8,857 nucleotides of DNA from the NCBI GenBank assembly GCA_002690445.1, contig NZER01000133.1, forward strand, positions 1 to 8,857, in the 5' to 3' direction. Positions 1 to 6,959 of this stretch are shown here, one piece after another. Position numbers and translations under genes: made by a program. Source of the stretch: Candidatus Pacearchaeota archaeon. Its GTDB lineage: Archaea; Nanoarchaeota; Nanoarchaeia; Pacearchaeales; GW2011-AR1. The notes beneath the pieces are model-generated. The model did no database searches. It was not told the origin of the DNA and worked only from the letters and a program-made list of their open reading frames with translations. How positions within the stretch are numbered: position 1 is the first letter of the stretch; each line of letters opens with the position of its first letter.

Positions 1-429
1 CGCTGGGTCATACTTAATACCAATAGAAGGAGAAATATGTTCATAAATTCTATTCTGCCAATTATCAGAGTCGCGGTCATACTTCCAATCTTTTTCATTA
101 GCGACCCGTTGTTCTTTGTTTTTCCAAATTCCATAGCCATTTAGTTTATGCGCCCAAACGTCACCATCGTAATGCTTACTTATACAAGTCAGCATATGGT
201 TTTGAGCAAGGGACTTCGCTGTTTCAAAAGTTCCAACAGTATCCATATTTGAAGCAACAATCGGAATACCCTTCCAGCCATACGCCTTTGGGTCGGAGCC
301 TTCACCTCCAGCGTTCTTAAAAGTAAACTCACGCATCAAGTTAACGTCCTTGCGGGAGGTTAACTCAGAACGCTTGGGACGTAGGAGGACGTCCTTGTAG
401 TCTAACTTTATTTCTGGCTCAATTCTCAC
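1..429 (-). CDS. guaC: GMP reductase, N-terminal 143 codons (runs off the left edge)
   Basis: GuaC is a cytosolic NADPH-dependent enzyme that converts GMP to IMP plus ammonia, feeding guanine nucleotides back to the purine branch point. The N-terminus follows the bacterial enzyme closely as I remember it: KLDYKDVLLRPKRS (residues 8-21), SRKDVNL (25-31), FTFKNAG (35-41), then IPIVASNMDTVGTF (55-68) and a KHY near 85-87. These are the start of the IMPDH/GMPR TIM barrel. The catalytic cysteine loop lies beyond the window. The start is GTG at 429, which overlaps the TGA of the endonuclease gene (GTGA) and puts the MRIE-type start exactly where E. coli GuaC begins. Compared with E. coli there appear to be about 25 extra residues around 97-122. 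IMP dehydrogenase is the alternative, but RPKRS, FTFK and NMDTVGTF favour GMP reductase. Confidence 0.92.
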   Translation of the reverse strand, partial: MRIEPEIKLDYKDVLLRPKRSELTSRKDVNLMREFTFKNAGGEGSDPKAYGWKGIPIVASNMDTVGTFETAKSLAQNHMLTCISKHYDGDVWAHKLNGYGIWKNKEQRVANEKDWKYDRDSDNWQNRIYEHISPSIGIKYDPA

Positions 430-1670
430 CTATTTAAATTTCCCTGTACCCCCTCAACACCATGCTGTTCGGCGGTGGATGTTGAAGCCCACATAGGGCG
501 AGTATTTGTATAATGGAATAGTTTCGTTAATTCTTCTTCTGTAGTCGCCTTGTGTAGTTCCTTCTCATGGTCAATGTGCCATACGTCTCCGTGATTTAAT
601 AGGTTCCAATGTTTTTGAACAAAATCTGGATGCTCTAATATATGCTCATTGATGTACCAATTTATTTGGCATCCTAGGATTTGAGTTGCTTTCGTGTCTC
701 TTTCTGTATATGACTGTGGATTTTTTATATAATTTTTAATTGCACCGTTTATTATAGTCCTTGTTTTTACAATCATCTTGTACATTGGGTTTGTAAGTTT
801 TCGACGCTGTATGGATATGGCTGCTGGAGTCCTGTGTGGTAGTAGTATAGAAATTTGTTTATTTGTTAGGCTGTCGTCCAGAAGAATATCAAGCTCTTCT
901 TCTGTCCAGTATTCCCAATCGTTGGAAACTTGAAATTGAATCTTCAAAGAGTAGCATTTATTTATAATGCTATGTGGATTTTTATCGTAATCTCCTTTTT
1001 CTCGTTTTTCCTTTATTTTAATTATTTCTAATTCCTCTTTCGCGTCTGCAAGAAGTTTTTGAATTTCTTCTACGGAAAGTTTTTTATTATCACGAAGTTT
1101 TTCTAGCACTGATTCTAGTTCCGGCTCCCAAAGGTGATTTAAACGGTATCCAAGTCTATTAAATTTTGACTCTATCGCAAGGGCGGTTCTATTGCAGTCG
1201 GGGAATTTTTTTAAAAAATTATCACAAAGGTTTTTCATTGCTCCTTTAAATAGATTATTAGACTTGAGCCATGTTTCCTCTTCTTCTGTCCAGCAATTTC
1301 CTATATTTAAGCCATTATTGTAAGCCCAAACCTGAACTGATTGCCATGTTCTGTTAAACCCCTTATTTTTTAGTTCTTTTACTGCTTCTTCAAGTCCTCC
1401 ATCGCCGTATCGGTTGTATTTTTTTATAATTTCTTTCTCCTTTTCGGCATATAAATTTTTTATTCTTTTTGTGAATCCACCGTATTTTCTTGCTTCGTTA
1501 TTAATTGCGCCGATAGACCTGCTAAATCCTTTCTTTAGAAGTGCTGCTTGGCATTGGTGAACTAAACCTTTTCCCGCTCCTTTCCCCGACCCGTCTTTGC
1601 TTTTCTTATTACAGAATTTTTTCACAATGATTTTCTCTGCTTCTGTCCAGATGCTTCCTTTTTTAGCCAT
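426..1670 (-). CDS. HNH endonuclease with about five Myb/SANT-like repeats
   Basis: This 414-residue protein looks like a free-standing, homing-type HNH endonuclease with an unusually long DNA-binding arm. Myb/SANT-like repeats, each opening with an aromatic and an acidic run and closing on a basic helix, can be traced at about 7-64 (IWTEAEK), 73-121 (degenerate, LYAEKEKE), 127-176 (CWTEEEE), 180-247 (degenerate, long insertion) and 254-292 (YWTEEEL, then LPHRTPAAI). The C-terminal third has the layout of many phage HNH proteins: ATQILGC (328-334), WHIDH (364-368) and HYTNTRPMWA (386-395). D367-H368 supplies the first HNH histidine and N389 the asparagine. The usual third ligand after PLWA is not clear; H403 could serve. 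The ATG start is preceded by a weak GAAAG. It follows the upstream gene by 4 bases and overlaps guaC by 4, so it sits inside the operon. Confidence 0.85.
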   Translation of the reverse strand: MAKKGSIWTEAEKIIVKKFCNKKSKDGSGKGAGKGLVHQCQAALLKKGFSRSIGAINNEARKYGGFTKRIKNLYAEKEKEIIKKYNRYGDGGLEEAVKELKNKGFNRTWQSVQVWAYNNGLNIGNCWTEEEETWLKSNNLFKGAMKNLCDNFLKKFPDCNRTALAIESKFNRLGYRLNHLWEPELESVLEKLRDNKKLSVEEIQKLLADAKEELEIIKIKEKREKGDYDKNPHSIINKCYSLKIQFQVSNDWEYWTEEELDILLDDSLTNKQISILLPHRTPAAISIQRRKLTNPMYKMIVKTRTIINGAIKNYIKNPQSYTERDTKATQILGCQINWYINEHILEHPDFVQKHWNLLNHGDVWHIDHEKELHKATTEEELTKLFHYTNTRPMWASTSTAEQHGVEGVQGNLNR

Positions 1671-2269: not shown

Positions 2270-2442
2270 AAATTATACCAATCTTTAGTAAATTTTGTAT
2301 TATACACATCAACCCAACAGTTCTTACAAAGTTGCCCCGCACCCTCCACGTAACAAGCTCGCATATCAATATGTACATCTTTGTCGTACGGTGTATCTTT
2401 ATTGCAAGCCACACACTTGTCTTTTTCTTTTTTATTATTCAT
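2266..2442 (-). CDS. Small zinc-ribbon-like protein, 58 aa
   Basis: This compact 58-residue protein has two CxxC pairs: CVAC (C10, C13) and CKNC (C39, C42). They are spaced as in zinc ribbons or rubredoxin-like knuckles, with an extra cysteine at 30. It probably binds one zinc ion; the partner or substrate cannot be told. The frame is open further upstream into thyX, but I take ATG 2442 because it overlaps the end of thyX by only 8 bases. ATG 2454, four codons earlier, is the alternative. Neither has a clear ribosome site, so translation may depend on coupling to thyX. The stop overlaps the next ATG (ATGA). Short CxxC proteins of this kind are frequent in phages and are usually unannotated. 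Confidence 0.7.
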   Translation of the reverse strand: MNNKKEKDKCVACNKDTPYDKDVHIDMRACYVEGAGQLCKNCWVDVYNTKFTKDWYNL

Positions 2443-3175
2443 GCGTTGATTCATCTGGTTTTTTGTGGTAACTTTGGAATTCATCCCACTGCATTTTTTC
2501 AAGTTCTTCCTCGCTCCATTCATGAGCCTTCCAGTCTAACGCCTCACTCACGTTTGGAAATTGTTTAATAAAGATATTTTTTACAGCATTAGCAATATCC
2601 CTATGTTCTTTCTGGGTATTTTCTTCCGTTCTTAAATTGATGTAATGAATCCAACTGCGAACCGTACCATTCATATACATAGTTGTTTGCGTTCCTAACG
2701 GCAGAATCATTCTAGCGCACTCTTTGGCAACGCCCCCCGCAATCATTTGCTCGTAAAGCTGTTTATTCGCATCCATCATCATCTCTACCATCGTGTTTAT
2801 TGCTTCGTCTTCGATTATTTTCGAGCTACTTTGTCTATTTTTTTCTGCTGGAGCACGTAATTCAACCGGCTCCATTTCTGTTGCCTCACTGTATCTTTGA
2901 CTAAACTCTTGAAAGCTAAAACTTCTATGCCTTAATATTTGCGCTGCGATTGCTCTGCTCGTTTTTATTTCGACGCACATATTCGCAAGCTCAAATGGAC
3001 TCCAGTGTTTATGTTTAATTAAAAACTTTAACAACTTGGGCGCAGTCGCGACATTATGTTGGTTCTTGGGGTTAGAAACCCTAGCACAATAAGCAATTAT
3101 GCCTTCTGCGTCCATAAGCTTATCGTCGTAGCCATAAACTTGGGGCTGAGTAAGTGATACAAGTTTTACGTGCAT
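2435..3175 (-). CDS. thyX: Flavin-dependent thymidylate synthase ThyX
   Basis: ThyX makes dTMP from dUMP using methylene-tetrahydrofolate as carbon donor and FAD/NADPH for reduction, so no dihydrofolate is formed. The diagnostic RHR-x7-S motif is complete: R82-H83-R84, then S92, followed by QRY. The later conserved block, LPLGTQTTMYMNGTVRSW (158-175) with HYINLRT (177-183) and a QKEHRDIA segment (188-195), holds the usual substrate- and flavin-contacting arginines. The length of 246 residues is normal for the family. ATG 3175 has AGGA six bases upstream. The gene lies between the Nudix and zinc-ribbon genes. It fits viral DNA synthesis, and ThyX is widespread in phages. The C-terminal tail (217-228) contains WSEEE, which looks superficially like the Myb-type repeats nearby. 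Confidence 0.96.
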   Translation of the reverse strand: MHVKLVSLTQPQVYGYDDKLMDAEGIIAYCARVSNPKNQHNVATAPKLLKFLIKHKHWSPFELANMCVEIKTSRAIAAQILRHRSFSFQEFSQRYSEATEMEPVELRAPAEKNRQSSSKIIEDEAINTMVEMMMDANKQLYEQMIAGGVAKECARMILPLGTQTTMYMNGTVRSWIHYINLRTEENTQKEHRDIANAVKNIFIKQFPNVSEALDWKAHEWSEEELEKMQWDEFQSYHKKPDESTHE

Positions 3176-3187
3176 TAATTTCCTAAT

Positions 3188-3949
3188 TTATTTACCGTTT
3201 TTAAACGTAAGTGCAAGCATGGCTGCGTTAAGAACTTCTTTTTTATTTTTGCTTAACTTTTCAAACGCTTCTTTATACGAAAACCAACCATATTCACTAT
3301 GCTCGAAAGATAGTTTGACATCCTTTGAGGGAGCAACACCCATGAAGTATGCTACCGTCTTGGGGATTGGACAGGCCAGCTTCTCGCGCGTTTTGTAATC
3401 AATTGTCACAAAATACTTAGATAAAAATTTAAAAGTAGGATGAATTTTTTCTATTACAAGCCCTGTTTCCTCTTCCGTTTCTCTCTTGGCTGTTTCTAGT
3501 CTAGATTCACCTTTTTCAATGTGACCCTTGGGAAACTCCCACCCGAAGCCACCTTTAATAAGTAAGAACTTTAGCTTTCCTTTGAAATTATGATTCTCAT
3601 CATACGCACCATCATAAAAACAAACCACAAATCCAGCAGCCTTATGCGCCCGTCTACTTATGCCGAGATACTTCCTCATGTCAACGACTTGTCGCGGGGT
3701 TTTATTAGGTAAAAACTTTTTTACCATTTCCTTATGAGTGTAATCCGCTCCATGCTCTATTAAGATGCCTCTTTCTTCCTCACTCCATTTTCTACGCCCA
3801 ACCAACTTCATGAGCATTTTCTTTTGGCAAATCTGCACGGGGGTTTTATTTGGCAAAAAATTATCGTGAAGCTCTCTCTGTGTATGGTCTTTCCAGTGCT
3901 TGAGAAGCACTGCGGTTTCCTCGTCTGTCCATATTTGATTCTTACGCAT
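3188..3949 (-). CDS. Nudix hydrolase fused to two N-terminal Myb/SANT-like repeats
   Basis: The C-terminal domain (about 104-248) is a Nudix hydrolase, which cleaves a nucleoside diphosphate linked to another group. The Nudix box is complete: G142, E148, R156-E157, E160-E161, G163 and L164, with T158 where a hydrophobic residue is usual. WEFPKGHIEKGE before it and EHSEYGW (216-222) after it resemble the Ap4A-hydrolase (NUDT2-like) subgroup, so dinucleoside polyphosphates are plausible substrates. The N-terminus carries two Myb/SANT-like repeats at 6-48 (IWTDEE) and 54-97 (KWSEEE), both containing FLPNKTP. Such repeats normally bind DNA, and the fusion is unusual. The start is well fixed: GGAGGA lies about nine bases before ATG 3949, the best ribosome site in the window, one base after the preceding gene. 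The substrate is inferred from resemblance only. Confidence 0.9.
   Translation of the reverse strand: MRKNQIWTDEETAVLLKHWKDHTQRELHDNFLPNKTPVQICQKKMLMKLVGRRKWSEEERGILIEHGADYTHKEMVKKFLPNKTPRQVVDMRKYLGISRRAHKAAGFVVCFYDGAYDENHNFKGKLKFLLIKGGFGWEFPKGHIEKGESRLETAKRETEEETGLVIEKIHPTFKFLSKYFVTIDYKTREKLACPIPKTVAYFMGVAPSKDVKLSFEHSEYGWFSYKEAFEKLSKNKKEVLNAAMLALTFKNGK
3696..3859. repeat. Imperfect internal duplication in the Nudix gene
   Basis: The two Myb/SANT-like repeats share a near-identical stretch at 3696-3715 and 3840-3859. Eighteen of 20 bases match when both are read on the plus strand; the copies begin ggggttttatt and end aaaaa. The spacing is 144 bases, exactly 48 codons, so both copies encode FLPNKTP in frame. 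This points to a fairly recent tandem duplication of the DNA-binding-like module, although selection on the motif could also preserve it. Confidence 0.75.
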
Positions 3950-3950
3950 A

Positions 3951-4202
3951 TTAATTATTCCTCCAATGATTTTCCGCTGGGCCTTTCTCGCTTTCTATAG
4001 GTTTATATTTTACGCACCAACCCCAAGTCATAATCGGTATTGTTACTGGAGCTAAAAGAATAAGCCATTTAAAAAAGAAAAATATACAATACAAAATTAC
4101 AGGAATAACCGTATAAAGCACCCAAGGATTAGACATCCAACTCCAGTCATACTGGAATTGCATCCAAAGAAACTCTAAATAAGCTGCAATAGGTTCATTC
4201 AT
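3951..4202 (-). CDS. Small two-helix membrane protein, 83 aa
   Basis: I do not recognise a family. The N-terminal 25 residues are aromatic (FLWMQFQYDWSW). Two hydrophobic stretches follow, about 27-45 (containing VIPVILYCIFFFF) and 46-64 (containing LILLAPVTIPIM), with a hydrophilic tail. It is therefore probably an inner-membrane protein with a short hairpin topology. I place the start at ATG 4202, four bases after the upstream stop and with GTAGAG just before it. The same frame is open to 4283, but that would overlap the upstream gene by 77 bases and add a basic, cysteine-containing leader. A holin or host-envelope modulator is possible from size alone, but nothing in the sequence shows it. 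Confidence 0.68.
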   Translation of the reverse strand: MNEPIAAYLEFLWMQFQYDWSWMSNPWVLYTVIPVILYCIFFFFKWLILLAPVTIPIMTWGWCVKYKPIESEKGPAENHWRNN

Positions 4203-4206
4203 AACT

Positions 4207-4527
4207 CTACGTTGGTTTGTTGTTAACCTGCATTGACACCTGACCAAACATTCCATCTTTATCAACCCCAGCAATTTTGCCAATGGGCTTATTTTTTTCG
4301 TCTACTAGGGTACAATTACCTGTAAAACCTAGTCTATCTACGGAATTTCCCGACAGAGTGCCTGTTCCTACTTCAACCGAAAGACCCTCTTGCTCTAACT
4401 TGCTGAAGTTACTGGCGACTATCAGGCAAAGATCATCTACGGTTGGCCGAAGGTTGTCGCCCCAGTTAGAGGTATATTTAGTAATATCGCCTTGTATCCG
4501 AGAATTAAGTTCGTCTAGTGTTATCAT
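4207..4527 (-). CDS. Hypothetical protein, 106 aa
   Basis: No family is recognised. The N-terminal half looks helical (LDELNSRIQGDITKY, then DDLCLIVASNFSKLE). The C-terminal half is glycine-rich and probably beta-stranded (VEVGTGTLSGNSVDRLGF, then GKIAGVDKDGMFGQV), suggesting a small alpha/beta or beta-sandwich domain. There is no signal peptide or membrane segment. The ATG at 4527 overlaps the TGA of the nuclease gene (ATGA). A purine-rich AAGGAAGGA is upstream but about 14 bases away, so coupling to the nuclease gene probably drives translation. The adjacent genes are a nuclease and a small membrane protein, which do not by themselves indicate a role. Confidence 0.72.
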   Translation of the reverse strand: MITLDELNSRIQGDITKYTSNWGDNLRPTVDDLCLIVASNFSKLEQEGLSVEVGTGTLSGNSVDRLGFTGNCTLVDEKNKPIGKIAGVDKDGMFGQVSMQVNNKPT

Positions 4528-4883
4528 ATTTTTTTTGCGTGTCCTTCCTTTATTAACATTTTATTTAAAGATTTTCCTTGATATTTTTCCGACCTAATAT
4601 AAGTCTTCGCAAATTGAACTTCTCCTATGCATCTTCCGTATTTTCCTACCCCAAGTGAGGTTAAAATGATTTCATTATCACTTTGCTCTATGGCTTGCGC
4701 GACTCTTGCTTTGGCTGCTAACCCCCTTTTCTTCTCAGCTTTATTTCTTGTTCTAGTTTCGGGAGCATTTAATCCCGCCAACCTAATTCTTACTTTAATC
4801 CAAATATTAAAACCAAGGTCAACCATGCCATCTATGGTATCTCCATCAACAACTTTAATAATTTTGGCTTCGTATTTATACAT
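4524..4883 (-). CDS. Staphylococcal-nuclease-like (SNase/thermonuclease) nuclease
   Basis: This is a small OB-fold nuclease of the thermonuclease family, which cleaves DNA or RNA with calcium. Recognisable blocks are VVDGDTI (11-17, with metal-site aspartates D13 and D15), IRLAGLNAPE (33-42), GKYGRCIGEV (80-89) and LNKMLIKEGHA (106-116). By comparison with S. aureus nuclease the catalytic pair R35/R87 corresponds to R34/R84 and E43 to E42. The D40 position is N39, a change I have seen in other viral and bacterial relatives. There is no signal peptide, so the protein should stay in the cytoplasm, unlike the secreted staphylococcal enzyme. The 119-residue length is a bare catalytic domain. The ATG at 4883 overlaps the upstream gene by 8 bases. 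It may act on host or phage DNA; the target is not visible. Confidence 0.92.
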   Translation of the reverse strand: MYKYEAKIIKVVDGDTIDGMVDLGFNIWIKVRIRLAGLNAPETRTRNKAEKKRGLAAKARVAQAIEQSDNEIILTSLGVGKYGRCIGEVQFAKTYIRSEKYQGKSLNKMLIKEGHAKKI

Positions 4884-6326: not shown

Positions 6327-6457
6327 CTTTTGCTGAACGGACTTTTAGCTAACTCCCAAAGCCCAACTGCCACGGCTGAAATAAAATATGCCGCACCCAT
6401 TACCGCGACAAGCAATAAGTACCACACTCTCCCCCAAAAGCTATGTTCTTCAGCCAC
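6323..6457 (-). CDS. Single-pass membrane peptide, 44 aa
   Basis: This is a 44-residue product with one membrane helix at about 11-34 (containing YLLLVAVMGAAYFISAVAV) and a basic C-terminus (KSPFSKR), suggesting the C-terminal end stays in the cytoplasm. The same frame is open to 6586, but that would overlap the Tat-signal gene by more than 130 bases. I choose GTG 6457, which overlaps the preceding TGA by 8 bases and has AGGGTGGA immediately upstream, a good ribosome site. The stop overlaps the next ATG (ATGA). Size and layout resemble small phage envelope peptides; no function can be read from the sequence. Confidence 0.65.
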   Translation of the reverse strand: MAEEHSFWGRVWYLLLVAVMGAAYFISAVAVGLWELAKSPFSKR

Positions 6458-6959
6458 TTTCCACCCTGTTAAAGTTTGTGTTAAAGTCTTCCTGCTGCCA
6501 ATGAATCTGACTACCCGTATCCCCATTAAACCAATAGTGTGCAACCTGTATCTCTGCGCCCCCATCATCAGACTGACGATAGACATCGTAAATAGAGTCT
6601 ATAATGTTAACATCGTCTTTAGTTCTGACGTGCATATCAACAAAGTCAGTGGCATTATCAAAGGTTTGAAAATGTAAAACACCACCATCCATCCATCCAG
6701 TAGCGTAATGCGGATTCCAAGAAAGATCATTCTCCTCCTCAAAAGTCATATATTCTCTTTGGTGAGCAAAGCTACCCCTAATGTTTTGACTAAACGTCCA
6801 CTCACCCTGCCCTCTCTCGTAGCAGTAAACACGATATGGCCAATTACAGCTACTTTCTTTCTCTGGACCTTTTTCGTCATCCTCGTACTTACAAGTGATT
6901 GCAATAGCTGGCAGTGCCGCTGCGGGGATTGATGCCTTGATAAAATCTCTTCTGTTCAT
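6450..6959 (-). CDS. Exported protein with a twin-arginine (Tat) signal peptide
   Basis: The N-terminus MNRRDFIK followed by a hydrophobic ASIPAAALPAIAI is a textbook twin-arginine signal (consensus RRxF[LI]K), used to export folded proteins across the inner membrane. C23 ends the hydrophobic stretch, but ITC is not a good lipobox, so a lipoprotein is only possible. The mature part, about 145 residues, is rich in Trp, Asp and aromatic residues (NWPYRVYCYERG at 39-50, ATGWMDGGVLHFQTF at 86-100, AHYWFNGDTGSQIHW at 140-154). It looks like a beta-rich domain; no family is recognised. The ATG at 6959 follows a 72-base spacer and has AGGA about 14 bases upstream. The product would be made in the infected cell and sent to the periplasm. 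Its neighbours downstream are a membrane peptide and the Coq4-motif protein. Confidence 0.75.
   Translation of the reverse strand: MNRRDFIKASIPAAALPAIAITCKYEDDEKGPEKESSCNWPYRVYCYERGQGEWTFSQNIRGSFAHQREYMTFEEENDLSWNPHYATGWMDGGVLHFQTFDNATDFVDMHVRTKDDVNIIDSIYDVYRQSDDGGAEIQVAHYWFNGDTGSQIHWQQEDFNTNFNRVESG

What the first reader, a model, noticed from the sequence alone, without database searches (positions are those of the whole stretch)
3188..3949. Nudix hydrolase fused to a tandem Myb/SANT-like DNA-binding module
The sequence shows a complete Nudix box behind two W-[ST]-x-E-E type repeats. Nudix enzymes normally act on free nucleotides. Coupling one to what looks like a DNA-binding array suggests an enzyme tethered to DNA, or a regulator that reads a nucleotide signal (Ap4A-like) and binds DNA. 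The joint is within one clean open frame with a strong ribosome site, so it is not a frame artefact.
Basis: partly seen in the sequence, partly recalled or inferred. Interest (0 to 1): 0.78.

Follow-up and report, generated by a model that had tools for sequence, protein, structure and literature searches.

The report
DNA-tethered Ap4A-type Nudix enzyme in phages
One gene of an uncultured, likely bacterial, virus joins two repeats that are predicted to fold like Myb DNA-binding domains to an enzyme domain that most resembles hydrolases of the stress nucleotide Ap4A, and related viruses carry the two halves as separate genes, so the pair likely acts together on DNA.

The parts
3188..3949 (-). 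Fused gene: two-repeat Myb/GcrA-like array plus Ap4A-type Nudix domain, 253 aa
3959..3964 (-). Shine-Dalgarno-like GGAGGA, 9 nt before the ATG
3797..3931 (-). Repeat 1, residues 7-51 (predicted helices 9-21, 24-30, 37-46)
3650..3787 (-). Repeat 2, residues 55-100 (predicted helices 57-66, 72-78, 85-95)
3200..3646 (-). Nudix domain, about residues 102-250
3461..3526 (-). Complete Nudix box, residues 142-163
3951..4202 (-). Small membrane-like protein, 83 aa (start codon chosen by me); relatives sit at the same place in L003, next to the lone array in L005, and before thyX in G001
2435..3175 (-). thyX, starts 12 nt after the fused gene's stop; the neighbour at which the empty, array-only and fused states are compared
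4524..4883 (-). Staphylococcal-nuclease-like gene, syntenic marker upstream

Best explanation
The gene encodes one protein in which two tandem repeats, predicted to fold like Myb/GcrA DNA-binding domains, are joined to a Nudix domain of the Ap4A-hydrolase type with an intact catalytic box, and it likely works as an active dinucleoside-polyphosphate hydrolase that the repeats would hold on DNA. Shown here: the architecture, its inheritance, the equal conservation of both halves, the intact box, and the existence of both halves as separate genes in related viruses. Predicted: both folds. Inferred: that the array binds DNA; that the substrate is Ap4A or a similar NpnN, or the Np4-type 5' cap of an RNA; and that the gain of the fusion is to bring this hydrolysis to transcribed phage DNA. 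The last step rests on context only: the lone Nudix gene sits beside a sigma-factor gene, and the array resembles a family that PHROGs calls a transcriptional regulator.
Confidence: 0.5

Rival explanations
1. A nucleotide-sensing transcription regulator: the array binds an operator of the phage's nucleotide-metabolism genes (thyX, the GMP-reductase-like gene), and binding of Ap4A or another nucleotide by the Nudix domain switches it, as ADP-ribose does with NrtR.
For: The array resembles phrog_323, a transcriptional regulator, and is found alone directly before thyX. NrtR shows that a Nudix joined to an HTH can be a regulator, and the prototype is described as having both hydrolase and repressor functions (passages of PMC6800001).
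Against: The box is intact in 11 of 11 full-length fused proteins, whereas mycobacterial and S. suis NrtR are described as inactive. The site before thyX is loose: in G005 array and thyX lie about 12 kb apart.
Confidence: 0.25
2. Two independent functions in one chain: the fusion is a neutral joining of two phage genes, and each half does what it did before.
For: Both halves are functional-looking genes on their own in related viruses; a lone Nudix lies inside the fused clade, so separation seems tolerated; the linker is the least conserved part.
Against: The joint form is kept in 11 clusters 69-100% identical to the window protein, and both halves stay under selection.
Confidence: 0.15
3. The array is a protein-binding SANT-like module, for example to RNA polymerase or a sigma factor, and brings the Nudix enzyme to the transcription machinery rather than to DNA.
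Against: The first fold matches are DNA-binding domains (GcrA), and related repeats sit on HNH-like and helicase-like proteins.
Confidence: 0.1

Closest known systems
Asymmetrical Ap4A hydrolases (human NUDT2, C. elegans Ap4A hydrolase, Chlamydia CT771, Thermus Ndx1)
   Different: They align over the Nudix domain only; here a two-repeat array precedes it. Activity not tested.
NrtR, Nudix-related transcriptional regulator
   Same: A Nudix domain joined to a helix-turn-helix DNA-binding part
   Different: NrtR has Nudix first and its HTH last, reads ADP-ribose, and two described cases have lost activity (passages of PMC6800001). Here the array comes first, is Myb/GcrA-like, and the Nudix is Ap4A-type with an intact box.
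GcrA, sigma-70 cofactor of alpha-proteobacteria
   Different: GcrA has one such domain plus a sigma-interacting domain (passages of PMC7403470); here two repeats plus Nudix.
R2R3 Myb and SANT domains; Myb-type factors of jumbo phages
   Same: Tandem three-helix repeats with a conserved W; jumbo phages of Bacillus phage G type are reported to have Myb-type factors (passages of PMC7824862)
   Different: Sequence similarity is below Pfam's Myb cut-offs; no eukaryote-like three-W pattern was tested.
Phage Nudix proteins of the NudE and NadM clades
   Same: Phage-encoded Nudix enzymes
   Different: A virus-wide survey puts most phage Nudix domains in these two clades and calls viral ones typically standalone (passages of PMC9503650); ours is Ap4A-type and fused to an array. 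I did not test the clades by tree.

Membership tests
Nudix hydrolase superfamily | PF00293 over its cut-off and complete Nudix box | tested here: met
   E 5.3e-16, 59.3 bits against 21.1; box at 142-163
Nudix hydrolase superfamily | Nudix fold | tested here: met
Asymmetrical Ap4A hydrolase | Closest relatives by sequence and fold are Ap4A hydrolases | tested here: met
Asymmetrical Ap4A hydrolase | Subfamily signatures PKG, PKTV and S.EH around the box (chosen from the alignments) | tested here: met
   11 of 11 fused, 21 of 21 lone relatives
Asymmetrical Ap4A hydrolase | Substrate-contact His seen in known enzymes (recalled) | tested here: inconclusive
   It falls in a three-residue gap of the alignment
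Asymmetrical Ap4A hydrolase | Hydrolysis of Ap4A to ATP and AMP | not testable with these tools
   Needs purified protein
Myb/SANT (Pfam Myb families) | Pfam Myb model over its curated cut-off | tested here: not met
   15.2 and 17.8 bits against 27; 13.7 against 22.9. 12 of 26 array members match Myb_DNA-bind_6 at E 0.1 or better, best 4.7e-11. Hence called Myb/GcrA-like, not Myb.
Myb/SANT (fold) | Tandem three-helix repeats | tested here: met
   Predicted, pLDDT 92.4 and 87.3; matches to Myb and SANT chains
Myb/SANT (fold) | DNA binding | not testable with these tools
   Needs a binding assay
NrtR | N-terminal Nudix followed by a C-terminal HTH domain | tested here: not met
   Order is reversed; NrtR description from PMC6800001
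NrtR | ADP-ribose as ligand | not testable with these tools
GcrA | GcrA-type DNA-binding domain | tested here: inconclusive
GcrA | C-terminal sigma-interacting domain | tested here: not met
   The rest of the protein is a Nudix domain

The most novel reading that the evidence does not exclude
The protein is a decapping enzyme that sits on phage DNA: the array puts an NpnN/Np4-cap hydrolase at phage promoters, so that stress dinucleotides are cleared, or Np4 caps are removed from new transcripts, where transcription starts. Such a DNA-anchored Nudix enzyme was not described in the papers found.
Probability: 0.2. Interest if true: 0.8.

Novelty: new variant of a known kind. Interest (0 to 1): 0.5.

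Why it matters
Dinucleoside polyphosphates such as Ap4A have been known for over 50 years with unclear roles; in E. coli they can start transcripts and become RNA caps that RppH and ApaH remove (abstract of PMC7044304). A virus that joins an Ap4A-type hydrolase to a DNA-binding-type array would point to DNA, and perhaps to transcription start, as a place where such nucleotides matter. Related viruses give a natural test set: an empty site, an array alone and the fused form at the same place before thyX, with the Nudix gene alone elsewhere.

Tried and rejected
Frame or assembly artefact: rejected (11 clusters and two further contigs). NrtR: rejected by domain order and HTH type. A homing-endonuclease piece in front of a Nudix: not favoured, because the array also stands alone before thyX in L006 and L118, though PHROGs also gives an HNH-endonuclease family on residues 44-150 (phrog_1891, E 5e-6) and the HNH-like ORF 426-1670 carries a related repeat.

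An order of events from three repeats to two to the fused form looked tempting, because P0032 and P0036 hold an internal MQKHQIWT and several fused proteins (P0002, P0004, P0007) start with MQKHQIW. A tree of the last two repeats is too poorly resolved to show it (3 of 24 inner branches well supported), so it is not claimed. In the Nudix tree the fused rows are not an exclusive clade: P0019 pairs with fused P0011, P0017 cannot be placed, and four of the 16 rows labelled fused (P0012, P0013, P0014, P0016) are gene calls that start inside the array region; P0015 was left out as too short.

Scans that gave nothing or little: named phage genomes hold no match to the array and two Nudix-only matches at about 40%. 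Genome contigs with the fused alignment gave 112 pattern matches and no relative, but rests on two short peptides. NCBIfam: 16 families for this protein, all under their cut-offs. The group-marker protein matches no named phage, so no cultured relative or host is known. In the PDB profile searches AI-designed barrels and a ribosomal protein also appear as chance-like matches. Paper searches: searches found no description of the architecture (one search listed 15 of 21 papers); one search found no paper; some searches were seen as listings only, apart from PMC7044304 (abstract and outline) and PMC7403470 (passages).

Full report
What is there. The window is a run of short genes, mostly on the minus strand. 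The ORF 3188-3949 (minus strand) encodes 253 residues. Residues 7-51 and 55-100 are two copies of a repeat that starts with W-[ST]-x-E-E; about residues 102-250 are a Nudix domain (PF00293, E 5.3e-16) with the complete box at 142-163. GGAGGA lies 9 nt before the start codon. A small membrane-like gene ends 1 nt upstream at 3951, and thyX starts 12 nt downstream. That the window is from a bacterial virus is inferred from its closest contigs in IMG/VR, the Shine-Dalgarno start, and sigma-70 genes in related contigs.

How widespread. Two searches of 5.77 billion proteins found the same 11 full-length fused clusters (236-255 aa, 69-100% identity to the window), plus shorter pieces (which listed 120 of 191 matches). 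Lone Nudix relatives of about 150 aa reach 68% identity, and lone arrays, mostly of three repeats, reach 65%. In the virus collection two contigs carry the full fused gene, L003 and L004; L004's protein is P0011 itself. Named phages gave no match to the array, and the genome collection no relative of the fused alignment (which rests on two short peptides).

The same site in different states. Genes are given in the direction of transcription. The window: SNase-like gene, two small genes, fused gene, thyX. L003: SNase, small membrane-like gene, fused gene, thyX. L004: fused gene overlapping thyX, with another small gene before it. L006 (record G006): SNase, array alone (102 aa, two repeats) overlapping thyX. 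L118 (record G010): array alone (177 aa, three repeats) overlapping thyX. G001: SNase, small membrane-like gene, thyX, with nothing between. The lone Nudix genes of G001 and G010 sit elsewhere, between a deoxyribosyltransferase-like gene and a sigma-70 gene (L001 and L026); in L005 those two neighbours are adjacent without Nudix. So G010 carries both halves unfused.

Counts over the group. Of 24 records (22 found by a marker protein whose alignment included the window, L003, L004, L006 and L118, and 2 found by the array), 8 hold an array, 4 a Nudix domain and 12 a thyX. Two are fused (G003, G004), one has both apart (G010), one has Nudix alone (G001), five have the array alone, and 15 have neither. 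Among the five with array and thyX the two are neighbours in four; in G005 they lie about 12 kb apart. I looked upstream of thyX in all seven thyX records without an array: only G001 shows the window's gene order. Three further records outside this set have an array alone (G007, G008, G009), and one a distant Nudix (G002). The records may be fragments, so absence in them is weak evidence.

Age and selection. In a Nudix tree of 45 rows, 16 fused rows and two lone ones form one supported group (100/99); the lone P0019 pairs with fused P0011 (99/95), which suggests one fusion and a later loss of the array, and P0017 is not placed. The array and the Nudix half are equally conserved among the 11 fused proteins, 78.7% and 78.5% mean identity over 55 pairs, against 59.3% in the linker. 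Between the window and L003, dN/dS is 0.10 for the array and 0.04 for Nudix; the other two pairs are saturated. Both halves thus look kept by selection.

What it likely does. The intact box in every full-length fused protein argues for a working enzyme, though prototypic NrtR is described as both hydrolase and repressor (passages of PMC6800001), so a regulator is not excluded. NrtR has the opposite order and another HTH, and in two described cases an inactive Nudix domain (same passages). Related repeats sit on an HNH-endonuclease-like protein in this window (residues 255-292 of ORF 426-1670; its C-terminal part matches annotated phage HNH endonucleases at 30-38%) and near the end of a helicase-like protein in L008. 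In these viruses the repeat looks like an adapter on DNA-acting enzymes. The most economical reading is an Ap4A-type hydrolase held on DNA. Why a virus would want that is inference: NpnN can start transcripts and become RNA caps in E. coli, where RppH and ApaH remove them (abstract of PMC7044304), and the lone Nudix gene neighbours a sigma factor.

What is known. The jumbo-phage survey notes Myb-type transcription factors in phages and Nudix fusions to NAD-related domains (passages of PMC7824862). The virus-wide survey puts most phage Nudix domains in the NudE and NadM clades and calls viral ones typically standalone (passages of PMC9503650). The passages I saw describe no Nudix joined to a Myb-like array, and searches found none in the open-licence library. 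I rate it a new variant of a known kind: a Nudix joined to an HTH is known, this combination I did not find described.

Noticed in passing
window 426-1670 (-); repeat at about 795-908: 414-aa ORF whose C-terminal part matches phage HNH endonucleases (30-38%) and which carries a repeat related to those of the fused protein (E 3.9e-6) and further W-T-E-E motifs.
   Followed up: partly
L008:3-4085 and L007:1-3066: Large helicase-like protein (Helicase_C, ResIII, run on L008) with a related repeat near its C-terminus (domain E 8.7e-5 and 2.3e-4).
   Followed up: partly
P0072, P0073, P0074: Distant Nudix relatives fused to other nucleic-acid domains: a uracil-DNA-glycosylase domain (PF03167), or the NFACT RNA-binding domain (PF05670; P0074 named Nanoarchaeota).
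   Followed up: no
window 2435-2527 (-): ThyX has a C-terminal extension (about residues 217-246, with W-S-E-E-E) also in L003 but absent in L006; the repeat profile does not match it.
   Followed up: no
P0017: Lone Nudix close to the fused clade is named as from a Parcubacteria MAG; it may be a misbinned virus contig, not checked.
   Followed up: no
window 6450-6959 (-): 169-aa protein starting MNRRDFIKAS (signal-like) that marks this virus group: 22 records in IMG/VR, no match in named phages.
   Followed up: partly
window 1-429 (-): Start of an IMPDH/GMP-reductase-like gene, 94-96% identical to those in L001 and L003; the closest matches among phage records include genes named GMP reductase.
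   Followed up: partly
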